Assembly (NCBI GenBank): GCA_019614645.1
Contig: JABWDB010000002.1
Coordinates: 16,157,501-16,221,500 of the forward strand
Reading direction: 5' to 3'
From: Stratiolaelaps scimitus
Taxonomy: Eukaryota > Arthropoda > Arachnida > Mesostigmata > Laelapidae
Length of the DNA stretch: 64,000 nt
In this document: piece after piece, positions 29,801-53,977 of the stretch
How positions within the stretch are numbered: position 1 is the stretch's first letter
Layout: every line of letters begins with the position of its first letter
Position numbers and translations under genes: made by a program
The notes under the pieces: generated by a model
Database searches by the model: none
Seen by the model: only the letters and a program-made list of their open reading frames with translations
Told to the model about the DNA's origin: nothing

Positions 29801-31125
29801 ACATATTCACTTTTTTTTTTACATATATATACAAGCTCGTACACAGATATCATAGACATGTGTACGTGGATGTCGTTCTCATCATTCGTCGGCTTGAAGA
29901 GTATTGATCGATCTATGTGATCGCACGACCAATCATTATCCTGATCCTCACACCAGCTCACTATCTCACATAGCTCACACTACTGTTACCACGAGCTCCG
30001 CTGCATACTGGAGAGTATCTGAAGTGGCCACGCTTAATCATGTAATGCTCGACTAGGTATGAGAGCGTTGCATAGAGAAATTAGCACAGCAAAAAAAGTT
30101 GCTCCAACGTCGCAGTCGTGTTTCACTTACGGTAAGTGCTGATAACGAGTCTGGGACGGGATGCCTCCTAGAACAAAACTGATTCGTAAGGGATTGCAAT
30201 GGTGAACGCGACTTGACACCAAGTACCGCCGGCGGACGGCAGCCAAACGAGGCGCTCTTGTAGCGAGGCAGTATTTCTTCGATTACAGAACGCTGCTTCG
30301 GCCACTACAGCTGTCTCGTTTTTCAGGAGTTTTCGATGTGAGAATTCAGATCGATCATCTCGATCTACAGATCTCGATCGTGTGATTAGTGCTGTAAACG
30401 AATCTTCGAGGTGCGTGATTCGATAGAGGCACCTGCGCTAGTCGACCGCCCACACCTTAACACAACGCTACGCCCTCAACTATCTAATAGCTTACGGATG
30501 TGAGTGAGATTGCTAACGAACTGAGTTGATGATGGGAGCAATACAGCTTGAAATGTCAAGGAGACATGAAAAGATTGATTTTCGCCGACCCAGTAGCGCA
30601 GTGTGGTACTTGGCCATCTAATTTAAGTGGAGTTTAGGCTTTCGAATGTATAACAATTCGCAGTAACACTCGATTCAGTATAGCCAAACAACATTGTTTA
30701 ATCATCAGAGACTAGATCAACATAATACTTCCGCGTTACAAAGAATACATCATTCTTAATTAGAAAATTAAGGAAATTTCTAACCCAGGACACTTCTAAC
30801 GGCATTATTTGTTTCAATTACAGGCAAAATAGGGACAGAAGCGCAAGAGAGAGAGAGTGAAATACTTGATCTAACAAGTATTCGCAGTCCGGCGGGCACC
30901 TGCCCCACACGACACTTCGCGTTCGAAGTGACCAGAAACGAACTTTGCAACGCACGACGGTAGCTTCGACCGACGCACATTCAACGACGATGCAATGCAA
31001 GCTTATCATCCACTCTACCACGGACGAAATGTAGACCGTGGTTCATACGTTAATCTGTCACTCAGTTCCACAGATACTGGCAGTGCTCTAGCAGGAAATA
31101 GGCCTTTGGCAAGGTTCAGATCAGC
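20896..31125. other. no gene recognised upstream of the microRNA cluster
   Basis: No protein-coding gene recognised. The stretch includes GC-rich parts (about 23,000-24,050, 25,100-25,560 and 27,590-27,680), CAG/CAA-type repeats (22065-22081, 23460-23477, 27177-27190) and a TA tract at 28061-28078. It may be transcribed as part of the let-7 primary transcript. In Drosophila that transcript extends many kilobases, but no splice or start signal here can be tied to it with confidence. Confidence 0.4.
28566..28623. repeat. imperfect two-copy tandem repeat, about 29-bp unit
   Basis: Two neighbouring units begin TATCCCTGCT and end AAATTTTACATAC. They differ at a few internal positions and by one base in length. 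A shorter degenerate third segment may follow up to about 28650. Confidence 0.75.
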
Positions 31126-31200
31126 GTAGTCTACCCGTACATCCGAACTTGTGTTTCATGTTTGAACTGTGTTCACAAGTTCGAAATTTCGGGTCGCCCA
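31126..31200 (+). ncRNA. mir-100: mir-100 precursor hairpin
   Basis: The 5p arm at 31132-31153 carries the miR-100 seed ACCCGTA followed by CATCCGAACTTGTG. Arm 3p at 31174-31194 starts CACAAGTTCG, which pairs perfectly for ten bases with the end of the 5p arm. At the base of the stem, ACCCG pairs with CGGGT. Known miR-100 starts with A and has A or G at position 9; here position 1 is T and position 9 is C. miR-100 belongs to the miR-10 family. The miR-10 alternative is excluded because the 3' half matches miR-100 (GAACTTGTG) and let-7 follows downstream. Confidence 0.92.
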
Positions 31201-33001
31201 CGTTGTTCCAATCATCGAAACAAGGCAGAGCGAGCCGTCGGCAATCGAATCAGCTATACATTACAATAATCGATGGCTGGCAATCGCTTTGACAATGATT
31301 AACAAGGCAAGGTACATTTGGCAGTGCTTTTTAGTTACCCCAAAAAATTATCGTACATTAAATGAATGCTGCTACTTTATGTGAACTTAAATTGCTCACG
31401 TATGCTAAATTTGTTATTCGCATTTATTCAATTCATCGTCATTAGTTCATTAACGACTCGTGTATTGATGTTGCGGTGACGATCCTGAGGGTTCGGCAAC
31501 CATCATACTGGGTTAACATGGCCGTACGTAATACCTTACTTATGATCCAACGCAAAGAAATGATTAGTTCGTTCCTGAATCGTAAAAGTCGTTTACTGCA
31601 TGTTCCTATCTGATGAGAAGCATGATGCATGTCGCTGTTTATGCATGCTAGAAGGTGTCACAGCTTCCAGCCGCAAGCTTCCGATCATCCAAGTCCTAGT
31701 GGAAAAATCGGTTTGAATTTTCCTTGTTTAGCCGTTAAGTTTGTTTCCCAGTGCTCAACCTTGATTTCGTTGTGTAACACCACCACATTTGTGTGAGTCT
31801 ACTCTGTGATGCAACCGAGTCCCCTCGGTTCGATAGCCAGTCGTCTCAACGTTCGATGCGAATAACTCAATGACCAACTCTGGTCGATCTGTGCCCGATT
31901 GCGCTGCAAAATGGTGAAACTGGACGTGTCACAAACACAAAAAAGGTAGCAGCTACATCTAGTTTGCGGTAGATATTACTATAAGGCGTCCACAAAAAAA
32001 ATAATTGGTATTAACACAATGATATTTAATTATTACGAATATATTTCCTACTAGCTAGAATTTCTTTGCCAGCCAAATTTAAGACTACCTCTATATATAT
32101 ATATATATATATTTGTTCGATAGATTTTAGATAATAATCATTGCATGCTCAAGCGAAATGTACTTATATTTTGCACCGTCTGCATCATTTATACAAAAGC
32201 ATGAGCAGCAATTGAATCAATGCCGTTCGTTGATGTCTTCATCACCCTATAAATAAGTCTGAAGATAATATTCTGAGTTAACGGATCAGTTTAGACCCCC
32301 GATACCTTTCTGCATGTCGTGGGGCATAAACGCGTTTGATATTTCCCTTCTCTAAATGGATTTACAACTGATATACATGCACGGAATACGAATGACGGAG
32401 AGGGAACTCAAGCCGGACAGCAAGGGTCTTTATATTCCTTGCAACAATCGATGTAAAGAGAAGCAGTCGTATGAACGACGGCTTAAAATTGGTTAAATAT
32501 TGTACGGATAAGCATGCCCGACTTGGTGTGTCCTGTGCATTGTGTAATATGGTCGGTCTATTCAGCGGCCAAGTCCCGTCTTCGGTAATTAGATCCCCAG
32601 GCAAGCCATCACCTATCACTAAGAGTTACTACATAAACCATAGAACAAAGCAAAAATTCATACATGTTATTAATTCATTGTTTGTACACCTGCGCTCTGT
32701 GTTTCTGTATAAGCATCCCGCATAAATTTAACAGCGTACCCTGCGCATATTCGGGTATCGCAAGTCATTCGGGTTCCCTTCAATCAATCTTTCGCAGTTA
32801 ACAGCCATCGGTGTATCTATATATGTGTTACTTTTGACGTGACAAATATTCCCAGGGTCACGAGGGTCACCGCGACACCCCCTATGCTCAATGACGAGGA
32901 TGGACGAGCCGTCGATGACGATAAGTGAAATCAGACAGATAGAAGATCGAGTTAGAGCAGAAAATGTGGAAAGGTTACCCGCTGTTGCTTTATCAGTGGC
33001 A

Positions 33002-33072
33002 GAGCCGAGGTAGTAGGTTGTATAGTTGTGGTCATACAACTATTTCGACTATACATCCGACTAGCTCATGCT
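33002..33072 (+). ncRNA. let-7: let-7 precursor hairpin
   Basis: The 5p arm (33006-33026) matches canonical let-7 at positions 2-21, including the seed GAGGTAG and the tail GGTTGTATAGT. Its first base is C instead of the near-universal T. The 3p arm (33048-33067) begins ACTATAC, pairs with GTATAGT, and continues with complementary blocks separated by single mismatches. This is the expected let-7 hairpin shape with a 21-base loop. let-7 is a temporally regulated microRNA of late development. The hairpin could be processed one base off, which would remove the odd first base. Confidence 0.95.
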
Positions 33073-33917
33073 AGCCACGCTGACATGAGCCCCTGCGACG
33101 GACAGCAGCAGCAGCAACAATAGGAGCAGTGGTCAACGGCGACAATCGATGAAGCTGCCGCGATCGACTTCGAATCAACACAGCCGCAAATAAAATGGTG
33201 CAAGTCCGAGACGTGTCTTTCAGGAGGAACCGCGACTCATGCGGACATCGCAGTCAGCCTGGACACATGCACTGTCCAACTTTTCGAACGTTGGACGTCA
33301 ACGAGCAAACGGTAAAATCGCGCGCACATTGGCTGCTCGCACTCAGTAACAAGCAGAAATTACGTGAGTCTCACTCTCTCTCTGTCTCTCGTACCGCAAA
33401 CAGCTAATTGTAGCAGTGTCCGTCGTATATTGTAGTTAAACTGCCAGGTATCCTATTTAATTTGTTTCTTGGAGCGGAGAACAATGGCTCAATTTGCACG
33501 CTGGTTTGAGAGAGCCGACGTTGGCACCACTTTATAATCGATAACAAAAAGATCACCTGAATTATATTTGTCATCATGTCATCTTGCGGCCTTATATTTG
33601 TCTTGTCTCGTCTCTATGTTGATTCGTTGTAACGTGTGTCTATGGATCTGTCTCCATGTGCTTGCGTCAACCCATGCGCAAGAAGAGTTTGCCCTCCCAG
33701 GAGCTAGCCACCGCTGTTTCGCAAGTGTTCCGTCTGATATTAATCTTTGTTAGCTCGCGTAAATCATTTGGGTGTGCAGCACACATCAGCAGAGTATTGT
33801 ATAATAGAAAGGCCCCCGCTGTCGTCTCAACTATCGACGAATGCCATTCGTTCACTGGCGGGAATGATTTATTTGTCTATAGATAAGGGCAAATAAATCA
33901 TTAAATAAGATGCCAGT

Positions 33918-34022
33918 AAGGGTAAAGGTTTATTCGTTTATTAACGAAACTGCAGCATTTACAATGACATCTAAGTTCTCTTAGATGTCCTGCTCAGGTC
34001 GCGGGACATCAACCCGCGGCCT
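33918..34022. repeat. dispersed repeat with hairpins, SINE-like
   Basis: Bases 33921-33966 match 63868-63914 closely: both start GGTAAAGGTTT and end TTTACAATG. Next to this lies a perfect 10-base inverted repeat (33966-33975 and 33980-33989, four-base loop). A second stem follows, whose arms GGTCGCGGG and CCCGCGGCC pair with one wobble around a seven-base loop (33998-34022). On the minus strand that second stem resembles a tRNA T-arm, as in the B box of tRNA-derived SINEs. The SINE assignment is inference. The element sits between let-7 and mir-125. Confidence 0.5.
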
Positions 34023-34246
34023 CCGGTATTATCTGATGTCGTGTTCGTTTCACCCGATGACATATTGTAAAATTATATGAGACACCTCAATGCACCATGT
34101 TCACCCCTCACTGAGCCACTTGCTGCACTGTCACCAATTTGCTGTCGTGTTTGGCAAGGCAACAACGTTCCCTACGCTGGGAGCGGCCTTCACCGGTGCA
34201 AAGCAGCAACAACAACAGCAGCAGTTGCACCCTAACCTCGGGGCGC

Positions 34247-34318
34247 TCCTTCTCCCTGAGATCCTTACTTGTGGATTGGTGACAGAGAAATTTCCCGGGC
34301 AAGGACTCTCGGGCGTGG
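34247..34318 (+). ncRNA. mir-125: mir-125 (lin-4 family) precursor hairpin
   Basis: The 5p arm (34253-34274) starts TCCCTGAG, the miR-125/lin-4 seed, and ends ACTTGTGG. It departs from canonical miR-125 at position 10 (C to T), position 14 (A to T) and the last base. The 3p side, about 34300-34320, contains AAGGACTCTCGGG: AAGGA pairs with TCCTT, CTC with GAG and CGGG with the CCC block, with small bulges. Its position as the third hairpin after mir-100 and let-7 supports the assignment. In flies miR-125 acts with let-7 during metamorphosis. Confidence 0.9.
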
Positions 34319-34677
34319 GCGGCTCCAGACCTCATCAAGAAAACCGACATACTGACCCTGCTCAACTCGCTCAACGGCGACAAGTCTTCGCTGATTCAGA
34401 GACAGCAGCAGCAAGAACGGGGCGTCGAATATAAACCTGATTGAATGAGACTCGCACCTTTGCCACGAGCACTTTTGCACTGCTGACATGAACAAGCCGC
34501 ACTGGCAGATAGATGCATCCATAGCTTGTATGAATCTCACTGCATTTGTCTACTGAATACAATATAATGATCATAATGAGAAAGTTATATTAACAACATG
34601 TCTGAGTATATCACACGTGTTGCATCATTTCCGCAGATGTTTATAATTGCTCGGCAGTTTGGCTGTGAGCAGCGGAA

Positions 34678-34683
34678 AATAAA
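34678..34683 (+). terminator. possible poly(A) signal after mir-125
   Basis: AATAAA lies about 360 bases downstream of the mir-125 hairpin on the same strand. It is the first such hexamer I noticed after the cluster, but the sequence is AT-rich and chance matches are expected. Confidence 0.2.
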
Positions 34684-35607
34684 GGTTAATTAGGGTTGGT
34701 TGTTTACGTGACGATCGATGGATAGATCTCTTTCTTGTAGGCTGAGATAGACATCTTGTATTCATATATCAGATGTCGTCTACGCAACGAATCCGAGCGA
34801 TCAGCCGCTCGGTCCGGCGCCAATTAGGATTATCTGGCAAAGGAATATTCTGGATTTGATGCGGTCAGAGAGCTGATGACGGATACAGCGCTGGCTCGTA
34901 GGACTAGGGTTCTTCGTTTGTCGGACACTGCAATAATATCCGAGATCCGGGACATACAATAGACAAGCGTTCAACTAACTGACTACTCACTATTTAATGC
35001 AACGCTAATTCCTTATACATTTACAAACATATTCTACCGTGCGCCTTGCTGGACGATCCATAGCTTATTGTCAGTATCAATTTCATTATTGCGGCTAATT
35101 CCCGAAATTTATAGACGAGCGATTACACCATTAGCCATTTATTAATTATTTGTCTTCTGCTTCCCAGTTAAACTCGGAAGTTCGCCAGCTACCTCGACTA
35201 CCAACGCCGACTATGAACCTAAATCAGTTCATAAACTCGCCACTTGCGGAGTCAATAAGAGCAACTCGATTATATCAAGGGAAGCATCTCATCGGCATTT
35301 CGAACAGACGCACTTGGGTGTCCCGGGTGGGCTAGTTAGCATTGTGCCCATTGTATCCCTATACAGTTAACTGGTTGCAATTGGCGAGCGGCATCGTTCT
35401 CGAAGACCATCACATTCTTGCGCTCAATCCTCAGCCTGCTCTCGGCAATCACTCACTCATCCCGTTCGTCATCCGATCGAAACACAACCCCCTCATCCAG
35501 TAGTTGATAGCTAGTCCAATTTTGTCTAGCTGCTGCTAGCGCTCAAGCCCCGTTACACCGCTTCTTCTTTTCTTCCGCATGGGATCCCGTATCGTTCCCG
35601 AATCTAC

Positions 35608-35612
<5 letters not shown>

Positions 35613-35647
<35 letters not shown>
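35613..35647. repeat. (TA)n microsatellite
   Basis: An uninterrupted TA run of about 35 bases. Confidence 0.95.
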
Positions 35648-35649
<2 letters not shown>

Positions 35650-38600
35650 TGGTGAGAAAGAAACCAATTCAACTGGCTGTTACTGCTGGCTCCTGACGCT
35701 CCACAGGCACCGGTTCGCCGAGCGGCCGACGCGAGGATTCTTGTCCGAGCTTCGAAGTTGTTGCAACTCACTACGGGCGCTGCTGCTATGAGTTAGCTGA
35801 GTTCCTCCTGTTGTTGTTGTCGTTGTCCTACTGACGAGAGAAATTGAGAGAGAGAAAACAACCTACCTACCTACCGACCACCGGTCCAAACCTAAACCAA
35901 AGCTAACTCGAGCGAGCCGTTGTGACGGTCACAGGGGATCGAGGTTGGTTTGCGGCTGATCGCAGCAGTCCTGCGCTTCCACGGTGGCACACTAGTGCAG
36001 TCCTCTGTGGCCTCGCGTAGACCCTGCGTCCGCCGTCGCTAGCTGGCCTAACTACTCCACTCCTGCCGGGCGCTTCGACACAGCCTGCACGCAGTTAGCT
36101 GCACCTGGCCCCCACTGGTGAGCTAGTCGCGACACTTCGAAGCAGGACGAATAGGGTGCCGGCCGGCAGTGGCGGTAGCGGCGGCGGTTGTGCAAATCGC
36201 GTATCGATTCTCGTGGCAGAGACTCGTGGCGGGCACACCCTGCGCGAACTCGTCCCGTGCACCTGGTATCATTACAACGCCTGCTCGTCCGCCCGCCCGC
36301 TGCCGCTGACGACAGCGACACACCGTCAAAGATATAAAGCACAGGGGTATTGAACGGAGTGCGCGGAGAAATCCTTTTTTAACTAGCAGTTACCTCATAA
36401 CGAAGGGAGAGTCGAGAGAAACGAGGAAGGACGAATGCCGTAACATGGAAATCGCCGCAGCGTTTCCTTTGGGAAATGGACAATGCTCGAGCATGGCCGG
36501 TCAACGAAAAATCCAAAGGCCTTCGATTCAATATATTGACTCGAGTGTTTGAGCAACTACTGTTCAACCAAGCACGGCTTGCGGAGGAGCCGTCATATAG
36601 TTGTTGTAATACATGTATGTAAAATAATGGCGAGCAAAGATAACTATAAAATGATCGGTTCTAGAGCTGAGGTTTAGGGATTAGCGCAGAGTACGCTCGG
36701 TCCGATTGTCTGACGATTAGTTATTCGTCTTGAAGACGTATCGTATCGGTAACAATGATATGTATATTCGGAGGCGATGAACTTAACGAAGCTGATTTGC
36801 ATGAGCCAAAAACATAATGCACAAACACACGGCGTTTCCAGAAAAAGAAGCCTTGTCTGCTGGGGTCTATGACTAGCGTGATCGTTGTTCGGTGCTTGTC
36901 ACGCTTTTACGCGACTCCAGTTAACCTCTTGCGATCAATTCAAGACACAAAAGCATCGTCATTCGAAGTGAAGCGTAGGCCCGAGTCGCTATAACGTCAG
37001 TGTTCAAGAGCTACCTGTCTTTTGTAGTAAATCGTCAACATCACTGCCGTAATTCGACCTCTCCTGTGTTTGTCAATACACAACAGCCAGGGCAAGAGCC
37101 AAAGCGTGGCCGGAGAGACTGCGGAAAAAGCAGGTGACTGACTCTCTGTCGGTCATGAGATCGCAGCCGCGTACGGGCTCATCATGGTGGCGCCTCGTTA
37201 CAAATGGAAAGATCACGCAAATGCTTTTGTTGCGAACGTCAGAAGATACAAGTGTTTGTTTTCTGACGATACATGAACGGAGTGGCATGCCCGTAGTGAT
37301 TTGAAGGTCGCTGTGCGTTTAGATATCGCGTAAGCTAAGGTCGGCGGTTACGAAAGAAATTCGCTCACTCACGGTGTTTCATATGATAACTATTTTCTAG
37401 CTCACTCTGTAGACGTCTAGATTGTGTATTCGGATACTAGTTGCTCACGGAAAATAAACTCAGGATAGAAATAGTTGCCATCTGTTGCTGGTATGAAAAC
37501 GTGTAATCGACAAACACATGATATTATAAGTGGACGATCTGTAGGTTGCTCGTAGGTCTCTCCTACATCGTTGTCATCCCATGTCGCGACTATTCGACAC
37601 TTGCAGCGAGCAGTGTGTATTTCCTGAAGGGTGTCCATGTGTCTGTACGAACGGTGGTTCGGTGATGATGGCTACAACTAGAGGGAGAAAGGAGAAGAGC
37701 GCGGCTGGCGCCCGTCGTAGTAGAATAGTTAGTGGTGGACCTAGCCAGAGGGCTTGGCTATGCAGCTGCATCAGTGGCAGCAGTATCGTTACATCATGCC
37801 GCACGCCGCAAAGTTACAGCTCATAGAAGTCTCACCTAGAATCGAGCGGCAATCACGCTGGTGGCGGTGGCGGCTAACGTCCTCGAGGATGCAGCCGGCG
37901 CCGCTGTCCGCGCTCGGCGATCTGCGGCCCTTGAGCCCTGTGGGTCTAGTTGCCACTAGACCACCCTCGCTAACGATAGCTAACCAGCCCATCCTCCCCG
38001 CAGGTTTCACTGCGACGCTGTCTGTCCCCGTTGCATGTCGACTCGAGCGAGTGCCAGCCACGTGGCGACAGATGATGCTGATGATGGCGATAGTGGTGGG
38101 AGTCGCAGCCGTTGAATGGACCACGAGTGGAGTTGGCGCCAGTCAACGCCAACTCAACTGGGTCGGGCCCCACCGAACCCCATCGCCAGCTATCCCAACC
38201 CGACCCACACACCCCCGCAGCCCCTCAAGCACTAGTACTCTCATTATCCAATGGAGCGTGACGGGAGTGAGTTTGCTGTGAACAATGCCATGCGGCCAAC
38301 GACAATGATGTAAGATGCCACCATCATCGGACAGTAGTTAGGGGGATGGTTGAGGTAACAGCCGCGCGCTATACCAACCACCCAACGAGGCAACTGGTTG
38401 CTTTGTTAGGTGCTTAACACGGGCACGGCTGGTGCTCATGCAAGAAAGAGAGAAAGAGGCAGAGGAAGGCGGTACATCTTGTTTTTTTATAGAACATTTT
38501 ATTTCGTCAAGAGACGTTGGTTTCTGCTGTGTCATCAATATTTTGAGGAAGGAAGACAGCGGTAGCATCAAGGGTAGTGTTTGACTGAACCTAAGCCGTT

Positions 38601-50863: not shown

Positions 50864-53800
50864 ATGACCGACACCGGAAAGTTCAATCCGAGAGATTACG
50901 CTCAAGCAAAAGGTAGGTTAACCAACGATGACAACTCTTCCTCGCTATTTTGTCAACCCCTATCCAGCTACAGTCGATGTGACCATTTAAATTGGTCAAA
51001 CCATTCGGAATTCGGTAACTCGTGTTTAATAATCACGTTGAGTAATTTTGATAGTGTTATTTTTTATTTCACATAAAAACGATCTGTGATTAACTTTTGC
51101 GATAGAGCAGAAAAACATTGTATCCTGTGTTGGCGATTTCAAGTGTGAGCTAGTGTTATATTTTGAAACGAGCTTTGCAGGCAACATTCGAGCGTCCTCG
51201 ATTTAAATGCCCCCGGCAATAATGTAGCAGTGAATATATCCGTCAAAATGATAAAAGCTGTTTGCGAATAACTCGTAATCGAAAACGTATCAAGAACAAA
51301 TTTCCATATCTACGAATTTGAAACGGTTTCGACACTTAGCTTTTGAAAAGGAAGAACCATCCTATCGAACGGTGCAATTATTGCTACGTTTCACATTGGG
51401 ATGTTCTCCACTACAAAAATGGGCTAGTTCACGTCAATTTCAATTCTGACGAAAAGGTGTTTGCATGCGATTTCTCGAAATATCGGAAACTAAATAACAG
51501 AGAATGATTCGTCGAAATACAAATCACGACAGACGTCGCTGAAAGCAGGTCAGTTTCAGTCTTCGCTCTCCATCTCAACGGGCTAGGCCCTACGAGCATT
51601 TTGTACGAGCATTTTGAAACCAACTGGTTTCCGCAATTCCTAATGAAAGTCGCCCAAAACGGCTGGCGCCCTTGAACAAGTGCCGTATTTGTATATAAAC
51701 CATATATGTTCACAGACCACACAAATGGAAGCTAACGTCCATTTAACCCCCTCCTCTAATATATTCATTTGTATGGTTATCAGTAGTCACAATTCCGCTT
51801 CATTTGTTCTCATTTCGAATTTCACAGAGCGTATTACAAGCTTCCTGTCAGACTTCACCGTCCGCAATGACCGCGGCAAGAAGGTGCGCGTTTACGCTGA
51901 CCAACTGCGGACCATCGCCCACCGTGAACAGGTCGGCCTAACGATCAGCCTTGACGACATCAACGAATTCGATGCCGAGCTGAGCGAGGCCATCATTGAC
52001 AATGCGCATCGGTACGAGAGGGTTTTCTCTGACGCGGTATTCGACCTTTTGCCCCAGATGAAGACTCGGGACACGCTACCGAAGGACACGCTTGATATCT
52101 ACATCGAGCATCGAATCATGCTCGAGGCTCGCCAGAGACAGCCCGGCGATCCTGTGCGTGACCCTCGCAATCACTATCCACCTGAGCTGCTCAAGCGTTT
52201 TGAAGTTTCCTTCAAACTGCCCGGTGACCACAAACTTATATCGGTGCGTGAGCTAAAGGCACTCTTCATTGGCAAGCTGGTCGGAGTCAAAGGTGTCGTG
52301 ACCCGCTGCACGGAGGTTAAGCCGCTAATGTCGGTGGCGACCTATATTTGTGATCAGTGCGGCGCCGAGACCTACCAGCCAATTGGCTCGACGCAGTTCA
52401 CCCCTATCGAGACCTGCCCTTCACAGGATTGCCGCACGAATAAGACCGGAGGAAAGCTGTCGCTGCAGACGCGCGGATCGAAATTCATCAAGTTTCAGGA
52501 GATCCGCATCCAGGAGCACAGTGATCAGGTTCCGGTTGGCGACGTGCCCCGCACCACTATCGTTTACGCTCGTGGTGAAAACACCCGTCAGTGCCAGCCC
52601 GGTGATCACGTGGCAATTACCGGTGTATACCTGCCAATGCTGAAGGCTGGATTCCGTCAAATGGTCTCGGGTCTGCTGTCCGACACGTTCGTTGAGGCTC
52701 ATAGCATTGTCCGAATGAATAAGCTCGAGGCCGCTGAACTCCTGGAGGAGCCGCTGAGCGATGAGGAGATGGAGGCCATTCAGCAGGACGACCTTTTCGA
52801 CAAGCTCGCTGGGTCGATCGCGCCAGAAATTTACGGCCACGTTGACGTGAAGAAGGCACTTCTTTTGCAGCTGGTCGGCGGAGTGGATAAAAAACCGACG
52901 GAAGGTATGCACATTCGTGGTACAATTAACGTCTGCCTCATGGGCGATCCCGGAGTGGCCAAGTCGCAGCTGCTCGGATACGTAACGCGTCTGTGCCCGC
53001 GAAGCCAGTACACGACCGGACGTGGCTCATCGGGCGTCGGTCTCACGGCATCCGTGATGAAGGATCCACTCACCGGTGAGATGACGCTGGAAGGCGGAGC
53101 GCTGGTGCTGGCTGACGGCGGAATCTGTTGCATTGACGAGTTCGACAAAATGAACGAGACTGATCGTACCGCCATCCACGAGGTGATGGAACAGCAGACG
53201 ATCTCAATCGCCAAGGCTGGTATCATGACAACGCTGAACGCTCGCGTATCCATTCTAGCTGCTGCGAATCCGCTGTATGGTCGCTATAATCCGAAACGGA
53301 CGATCGAGCAGAATGTCAATCTGCCCGCTGCTCTTCTATCCCGTTTCGACCTGCTGTACCTCATCCAGGACAAGATCGACCGTGAGGCTGACCAGAGGCT
53401 GGCTGCCCACATCACGTTCGTTCACAAGAACTGTAGCGAACCCCCGCTCAACTTTACGCCACTGGACATGCGGCTGTTACGGCGCTACATCGCAGCCTGT
53501 CAAAAGGTCGATCCATTCGTCCCCGAAGAGTTGACCGAGTACATCGTACGTGGCTACGTAGAGGTGCGAAAAGAAGCTCGGGGTGGAGGTAACGATTCAA
53601 CGTTCATGTCGCCCAGGACACTGTTGGCGATTCTCCGTTTGGCCACTGCCCTCGCTCGCCTTCGTACCAGCGACAAGGTCGAGAAAGAGGACGTCGACGA
53701 GGCGCTTCGTCTTATGGAATCATCGAAAGCCTCCCTGCACGACCGCGTCGAGGGTCCGGGCGCCAGGCGTCTCCAGACTCCGGTCGACCGCGTTTACCAA

Positions 53801-53977
53801 ATCATTCAGGAGTTCGCTTCGTCGTCCGGCTCAAGCTCGGCAAAGGTATCCGAACTGCTTGACCTTTGCGTATCGAAAGGTATCAAGCAGAGCGATTTCG
53901 ACAAGGCAATCAGTGAGTACGAGGAGCTCAATGTGTGGCAGCTCAACCAGAACGGAACTCGACTACAATTCGTTTAA
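50864..53977 (+). CDS. MCM7: DNA replication licensing factor MCM7, 2 exons, complete
   Basis: A subunit of the MCM2-7 hexamer, the replicative helicase motor in the nucleus. Exon 1 (50864-50912) encodes [16 protein letters not shown] plus one base. Exon 2 (51828-53977) continues with [10 protein letters not shown] and ends in TAA, giving 732 residues against about 720 in human and fly. The intron is GT-AG with matching phase. Visible motifs: a C4 zinc finger (C191, C194, C213, C218), Walker A GDPGVAKS at 389-396, Walker [10 protein letters not shown] (D453, E454), the arginine finger SRFD at R522, and the usual C-terminal ending EELNVWQ...FV. The ATG has A at -3. An in-frame ATG at 51680 opens the same frame earlier, but those 49 codons are intron and unlike MCM7. 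E2F-like sites lie upstream. Confidence 0.96.

What the first reader, a model, noticed from the sequence alone, without database searches (positions are those of the whole stretch)
31126..34318. Conserved let-7 complex in otherwise gene-free DNA
Three hairpins carrying the miR-100, let-7 and miR-125 seeds occur on one strand in the conserved order within 3.2 kb. This explains at least part of a 41-kb stretch without protein genes: it probably holds the promoter, non-coding exons and introns of the primary transcript. Direct sequence shows the mature arms and complementary strands; cluster biology is established for bilaterians; transcript extent is inferred.
Basis: partly seen in the sequence, partly recalled or inferred. 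Interest (0 to 1): 0.9.

Follow-up and report, generated by a model that had tools for sequence, protein, structure and literature searches.

The report
Mite let-7 microRNA cluster, altered ends
This stretch of a predatory mite's genome holds the ancient three-microRNA let-7 cluster that times animal development; it is an expected find, except that its let-7 begins with an unusual letter (C instead of U) that could change how it is loaded into its protein partner.

Summary
On the + strand, within 3.2 kb, lie a miR-100 hairpin (31125-31203), a let-7 hairpin (33000-33073) and a miR-125-like hairpin (34251-34318), in the conserved order, seeds intact. Matches to mature sequences (20, 21, 19 of 22) exceed the best of 40 shuffled windows (17, 18, 17). 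miR-100 and let-7 fold far better than shuffles; miR-125 does not, and rests on its 5p sequence and position. The genome is a mesostigmatan mite, very probably Stratiolaelaps scimitus. None of the three reaches Rfam's gathering score, so annotation at that cut-off would miss them. No protein domain was found in the 29 frames of 120 aa or more in the first 42.8 kb. The primary transcript is untested. The target seed is untouched, but Argonaute loading could change. New member of a known kind with one testable oddity.

The parts
31125..31203 (+). mir-100 precursor hairpin
   Evidence: Rfam RF00104 37.5 bits, E 1.6e-6 in a 6-kb search, below the gathering score 47.5; z -4.3
31132..31153 (+). miR-100-5p: seed ACCCGUA intact; g1 U (canonical A), g9 C (canonical G)
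   Evidence: 20/22 match; canonical sequence recalled; ends by homology only
31174..31195 (+). miR-100 3p (star) arm, approximate ends
   Evidence: pairing partners in the fold
33000..33073 (+). let-7 precursor hairpin
   Evidence: Rfam RF00027 35.2 bits on +, below 53.5; z -4.1 to -5.1
33006..33028 (+). let-7-5p: seed GAGGUAG intact; first nucleotide C instead of U
   Evidence: 21/22 match; C33006 unpaired in the fold, across from A33068; ends by homology only
33046..33068 (+). let-7 3p (star) arm, approximate ends; keeps A33068, which could pair with a U at position 1
   Evidence: fold
34251..34318 (+). probable mir-125 precursor hairpin
   Evidence: RF03770 14.4 bits, E 3; fold topology as expected but z only -0.4 to -1.0
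34253..34274 (+). miR-125-5p: seed CCCUGAG intact; g10, g14, g22 changed
   Evidence: 19/22 match; ends by homology only
32085..32091 (+). let-7 seed-match heptamer on the sense strand between the first two hairpins; may be chance
   Evidence: 9 such heptamers in the window on both strands, 5.2 expected, 10 of 100 shuffles with 9 or more
51647..53977 (+). uninterrupted MCM7 frame used to place the organism (frame starts before the matched protein starts)
   Evidence: 93% identical to Tropilaelaps mercedesae, 81% to Galendromus occidentalis over 92% of the frame; Pfam MCM

Best explanation
This is the let-7 complex (mir-100, let-7, mir-125) of a laelapid mite, very probably Stratiolaelaps scimitus. 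One non-coding primary transcript from the + strand would be cut by Drosha and Dicer-1 into three 5p guide RNAs that repress developmental-timing targets through their unchanged seeds, probably around the moults under ecdysone control as reported for flies and for a tick. Shown here: sequence, strand, order, spacing, folding of two of three hairpins, intact seeds. Inferred: co-transcription, processing, timing role and targets. In this assembly let-7 lacks its 5' U. Because nucleotide 1 sits in the Argonaute MID pocket and does not pair with the target (recalled), targeting should be unaffected. Lower 5'-nucleotide affinity may be partly offset because the C-A mismatch makes the 5p end easier to open (inference).
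For: Order, strand and 22-nt matches. Folding of miR-100 and let-7. Relaxed Rfam hits to mir-10 and let-7. All six differences from the canonical mature sequences lie outside g2-g8. Host: MCM7 93% to Tropilaelaps, assembly 426,401,914 bases against 426.50 Mb for S. scimitus (PMC7936031, passages). Only one exact GAGGTAGTAGGTTGTAT found in the genome; the two other hits have one mismatch, against three hits for the reversed control pattern, and their predicted folds are not let-7-like and lie within or near the shuffle range (49 and 10 of 200 as good, against 0 of 200 for the window's let-7). In the tick Hyalomma, let-7 targets EcR in a reporter assay and alters moulting; [quoted passage not shown]
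Against: None of the three loci reaches its Rfam gathering score. Rfam scores the minus strand of the let-7 hairpin slightly higher than the plus strand (38.4 against 35.2). The miR-125 fold is not better than shuffles and its Rfam E-value is 3. Six changes all missing 21 seed positions out of 66 has p 0.09, so that alone is weak evidence of constraint. No expression data. [quoted passage not shown]
Confidence: 0.93

Rival explanations
1. The let-7 g1 C is a consensus error or an individual allele, and the species has ordinary U1 let-7.
For: Star arm keeps the A that would pair with U; U1 would give a more stable fold, -43.8 against -41.1 kcal/mol. Only one assembly was seen.
Against: PacBio about 150x plus two rounds of short-read polishing of a parthenogenetic isolate are reported for the S. 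scimitus assembly (PMC7936031, passages), if this is that assembly. miR-100 and miR-125 also differ from canonical, so divergence here is general.
Confidence: 0.12
2. The complex is decaying and no longer makes functional microRNAs.
For: Sub-threshold Rfam scores, weak miR-125 fold, non-U g1.
Against: Three intact seeds and two highly significant hairpins; let-7 otherwise 21/22. A Varroa small-RNA study names let-7-5p among its predicted miRNAs conserved with Drosophila (PMC8966896, passages).
Confidence: 0.04
3. The let-7 hairpin is (also) transcribed from the minus strand, giving a U1 RNA with a changed seed (GAGCUAG).
For: Rfam - strand score 38.4 against 35.2 on +; the - strand fold is also stable (z -3.7, 1 of 200 shuffles as good).
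Against: The - strand arm matches let-7 in only 18/22 with a changed seed, and both neighbours match better on +; the miR-100 hairpin too scores on both strands, as near-palindromic hairpins do.
Confidence: 0.05

Closest known systems
mir-100/let-7/mir-125 cluster (let-7 complex) of arthropods
   Same: Same three families, order and strand; 1,874 and 1,247 bases between 5p starts
   Different: Divergent precursors below Rfam cut-offs; let-7 g1 C; miR-100 g1 U; weak miR-125 fold
let-7 of trematodes (GGAGGUAG...) and sme-let-7d (AGAGGUAG...), listed in PMC7878377 (passages)
   Same: Annotated let-7 genes without 5' U
   Different: Theirs start with G or A, and the rest of those mature sequences has diverged; here 5' C with the remaining 21 nt canonical
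let-7 used in Hyalomma asiaticum work (PMC6521442, passages)
   Same: Identical from g2 to g21; parasitiform host with a moulting role
   Different: U1; but that paper took the sequence from miRBase rather than measuring it in the tick, so it does not show the tick's own first base

Membership tests
let-7 microRNA | Seed g2-g8 GAGGUAG on the 5p arm | tested here: met
let-7 microRNA | Single stable precursor hairpin | tested here: met
   z -4.1 to -5.1
let-7 microRNA | 5' U (usual, not required: G1 and A1 let-7s are annotated) | tested here: not met
   C33006
let-7 microRNA | Rfam RF00027 gathering score (a database cut-off) | tested here: not met
   35.2 on +, 38.4 on -, against 53.5 bits
let-7 microRNA | Expressed, Dicer-cut 5p guide | not testable with these tools
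   no small-RNA data
mir-100 (mir-10 superfamily) | Seed ACCCGUA and stable hairpin | tested here: met
   20/22; z -3.6 to -4.5
mir-100 (mir-10 superfamily) | Rfam RF00104 gathering score (a database cut-off) | tested here: not met
   37.5 against 47.5 bits
mir-125/lin-4 | Seed CCCUGAG in 5p arm, cluster position | tested here: met
   19/22, third in the cluster
mir-125/lin-4 | Hairpin more stable than composition predicts | tested here: not met
   z -0.4 to -1.0; Rfam 14.4 bits against 88, E 3. Filed as probable only
let-7 complex | Order mir-100, let-7, mir-125 on one strand | tested here: met
let-7 complex | One primary transcript | not testable with these tools
   no RNA data

The most novel reading that the evidence does not exclude
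Laelapid mites have changed let-7 from a 5' U to a 5' C guide, shifting part of it from the miRNA Argonaute (Ago1) towards their expanded Ago2 group, while the central g10 mismatch in its duplex still pulls it to Ago1: a natural sorting conflict in one of the most conserved animal microRNAs.
Probability: 0.1. Interest if true: 0.7.

Novelty: new member of a known kind. Interest (0 to 1): 0.33.

Why it matters
The cluster is expected in an arthropod and its presence is ordinary. Two points add value. It would be missed by annotation at Rfam gathering scores. And a let-7 that is canonical except for a C at position 1 is a natural test of how strongly 5'-nucleotide identity shapes Argonaute choice: in flies 5' C favours Ago2, and changing miR-184's 5' U to C lowered its loading (PMC3127740, abstract and passages), and four mesostigmatan mites are reported to carry 1-2 Ago1 and 4-8 Ago2 genes (PMC7659050, passages). 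The Argonaute genes of this mite were not examined.

Tried and rejected
Codon-usage scan for hidden exons: it found MCM7 and a frame antisense to it but missed the NAD synthase and ABC transporter pieces, so it is too insensitive to support the gene-free claim and is not used. Ecdysone-response-element scan: chance level. Repeats of 40 nt or more within 1-42800: simple AT-type repeats and one GA-rich pair; this compares the stretch with itself and is no test for dispersed transposons. Rfam at gathering score on 10 kb either side of the window: 0. Let-7 core in viral and prokaryote collections: 0 and 0, as expected. Paper searches and the passages seen gave no mature let-7 sequence for Varroa or Galendromus; the Varroa study's sequences may be in supplements, which could not be opened. 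The 18-mer CGAGGUAGUAGGUUGUAU or its DNA form is in 0 papers of the held full-text library (supplements and papers not held were not searched). Considered and rejected: chance resemblance.

[quoted passage not shown] names and family facts marked as recalled. One in-silico single-base change at let-7 position 1 was folded as a comparison. Malformed calls rejected by the tools: 34 (redone with other terms in 36), 44 (redone with other terms in 45), 48 (followed by 50 and 51), 86 (this report in a wrong format). The genome search answered once and was unanswered as busy in 22 tries. The message asked to repeat the same request after a few minutes and not another form. Searches were the request answered in 22. 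After that I repeated three requests first made (RF00027, a miR-125 pattern, a miR-100 pattern), turning from RF00027 to the miR-125 pattern and back at 82, and several repeats came sooner than a few minutes; idle waits are and the end of 53. While it was unanswered I also ran the let-7 core pattern on the viral and prokaryote collections.

Full report
What was claimed and what is there. In 40 dinucleotide shuffles of the window the best matches on either strand were 17, 18 and 17 of 22. The 5p starts are 1,874 and 1,247 bases apart.

Folding. miR-100 and let-7 hairpins are far more stable than shuffles (z -4.3 and -4.1, 0 of 200 each; z -3.6 to -5.1, 0 of 500 in each of four other windows). 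The miR-125 stretch gives the expected topology but no excess stability (z -0.8, 40 of 200; z -1.0, -0.7, -0.4 with 75, 101, 155 of 500 as good in three windows).

Database models. Rfam at gathering score finds nothing in the window. With a relaxed threshold over 30000-36000, mir-10/100 reaches 37.5 bits (cut-off 47.5) and let-7 35.2 on + and 38.4 on - (cut-off 53.5). mir-125 reaches 14.4 bits (cut-off 88) at E = 3 when a 181-base stretch alone is searched. The S. scimitus genome paper reports 16 miRNAs from an Infernal and tRNAscan pipeline (PMC7936031, passages); if it used gathering scores, this cluster would not be among them. I did not see its list.

Strand. The minus-strand let-7 arm starts with U but has a changed seed and only 18/22 matches, and both neighbours match better on + (miR-100 20 against 17 of 22; miR-125 19/22 on +, its hairpin not among the best four on -). 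The + strand is the better reading despite the Rfam let-7 scores.

Organism. The uninterrupted MCM7 frame at 51647-53977 is 93% identical to Tropilaelaps mercedesae and 81% to Galendromus occidentalis (the top-ranked row by score, labelled Lingula anatina, has 66% identity). The assembly has 426,401,914 bases in 145 contigs; S. scimitus is published as 426.50 Mb in 158 contigs, GC 45.85%. The species name is an inference from these figures.

The altered let-7 end. Position 1 is C33006. In the fold it is unpaired across from A33068; a U there would pair, and the predicted energy would go from -41.1 to -43.8 kcal/mol. No U lies in the five bases upstream or the four bases downstream of it, so any guide that keeps the GAGGUAG seed frame cannot start with a templated U. 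The core GAGGTAGTAGGTTGTAT was found exactly once in the genome; two further hits have one mismatch, against three hits for the reversed control pattern. Folded as 90-base pieces these two do not look like let-7 and are matched by 49 and 10 of 200 simple shuffles, against 0 of 200 for the window's let-7. That U1 is the ancestral state is recalled; the tick paper that I hoped would show it took its sequence from miRBase (PMC6521442). Non-U let-7s are listed with G (Fasciola, Schistosoma) and A (Schmidtea let-7d) (PMC7878377, passages). I found no C1 version of the canonical sequence in the held library.

Consequence. In flies a 5' U promotes Ago1 loading, a 5' C favours Ago2, a central mismatch favours Ago1, and changing miR-184 U1 to C lowered loading (PMC3127740, abstract and passages). 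The mite let-7 duplex has unpaired bases at g1, g5, g10 and g13, so structure points to Ago1 and the first nucleotide to Ago2. In four mesostigmatan genomes 1-2 Ago1 and 4-8 Ago2 genes are reported (PMC7659050, passages); the Argonautes of this genome were not searched. Most likely let-7 still loads Ago1, with the frayed 5p end helping. Re-sorting is the bold alternative.

Surroundings. All 29 stop-to-stop frames of 120 aa or more starting in 1-42800 lack Pfam domains at E 0.01; shorter exons were not scanned. NAD synthase, MCM7 and ABC transporter pieces lie at 42.8 kb and beyond. No tRNA was found; self-repeats in 1-42800 are simple AT-type repeats and one GA-rich pair. The primary transcript, its promoter and its exons were not shown.

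Verdict. The let-7 complex of a predatory mite: real and expected, with divergent precursors and a single unusual nucleotide worth a small-RNA experiment.

Noticed in passing
window 33000-33073, strand -: The antisense of the let-7 hairpin scores higher in Rfam than the sense strand (38.4 against 35.2 bits) and its 5p arm starts UGAGCUAGU, a let-7-like RNA with a changed seed.
   Followed up: partly
window 32085-32091: A let-7 seed-match heptamer (CTACCTC) lies on the sense strand 0.9 kb upstream of let-7, recalling self-binding of the worm let-7 primary transcript (recalled); 9 heptamers in the window against 5.2 expected, so it may be chance.
   Followed up: partly
window 51647-53977: MCM7 is a single uninterrupted frame that covers the whole domain set, so it seems to have no intron.
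   Followed up: no
window 32061-32111 and 35613-35663: Inverted repeat around TA runs with partly matching flanks (73% complementary, 51 nt) brackets let-7 and miR-125; probably simple repeat.
   Followed up: no
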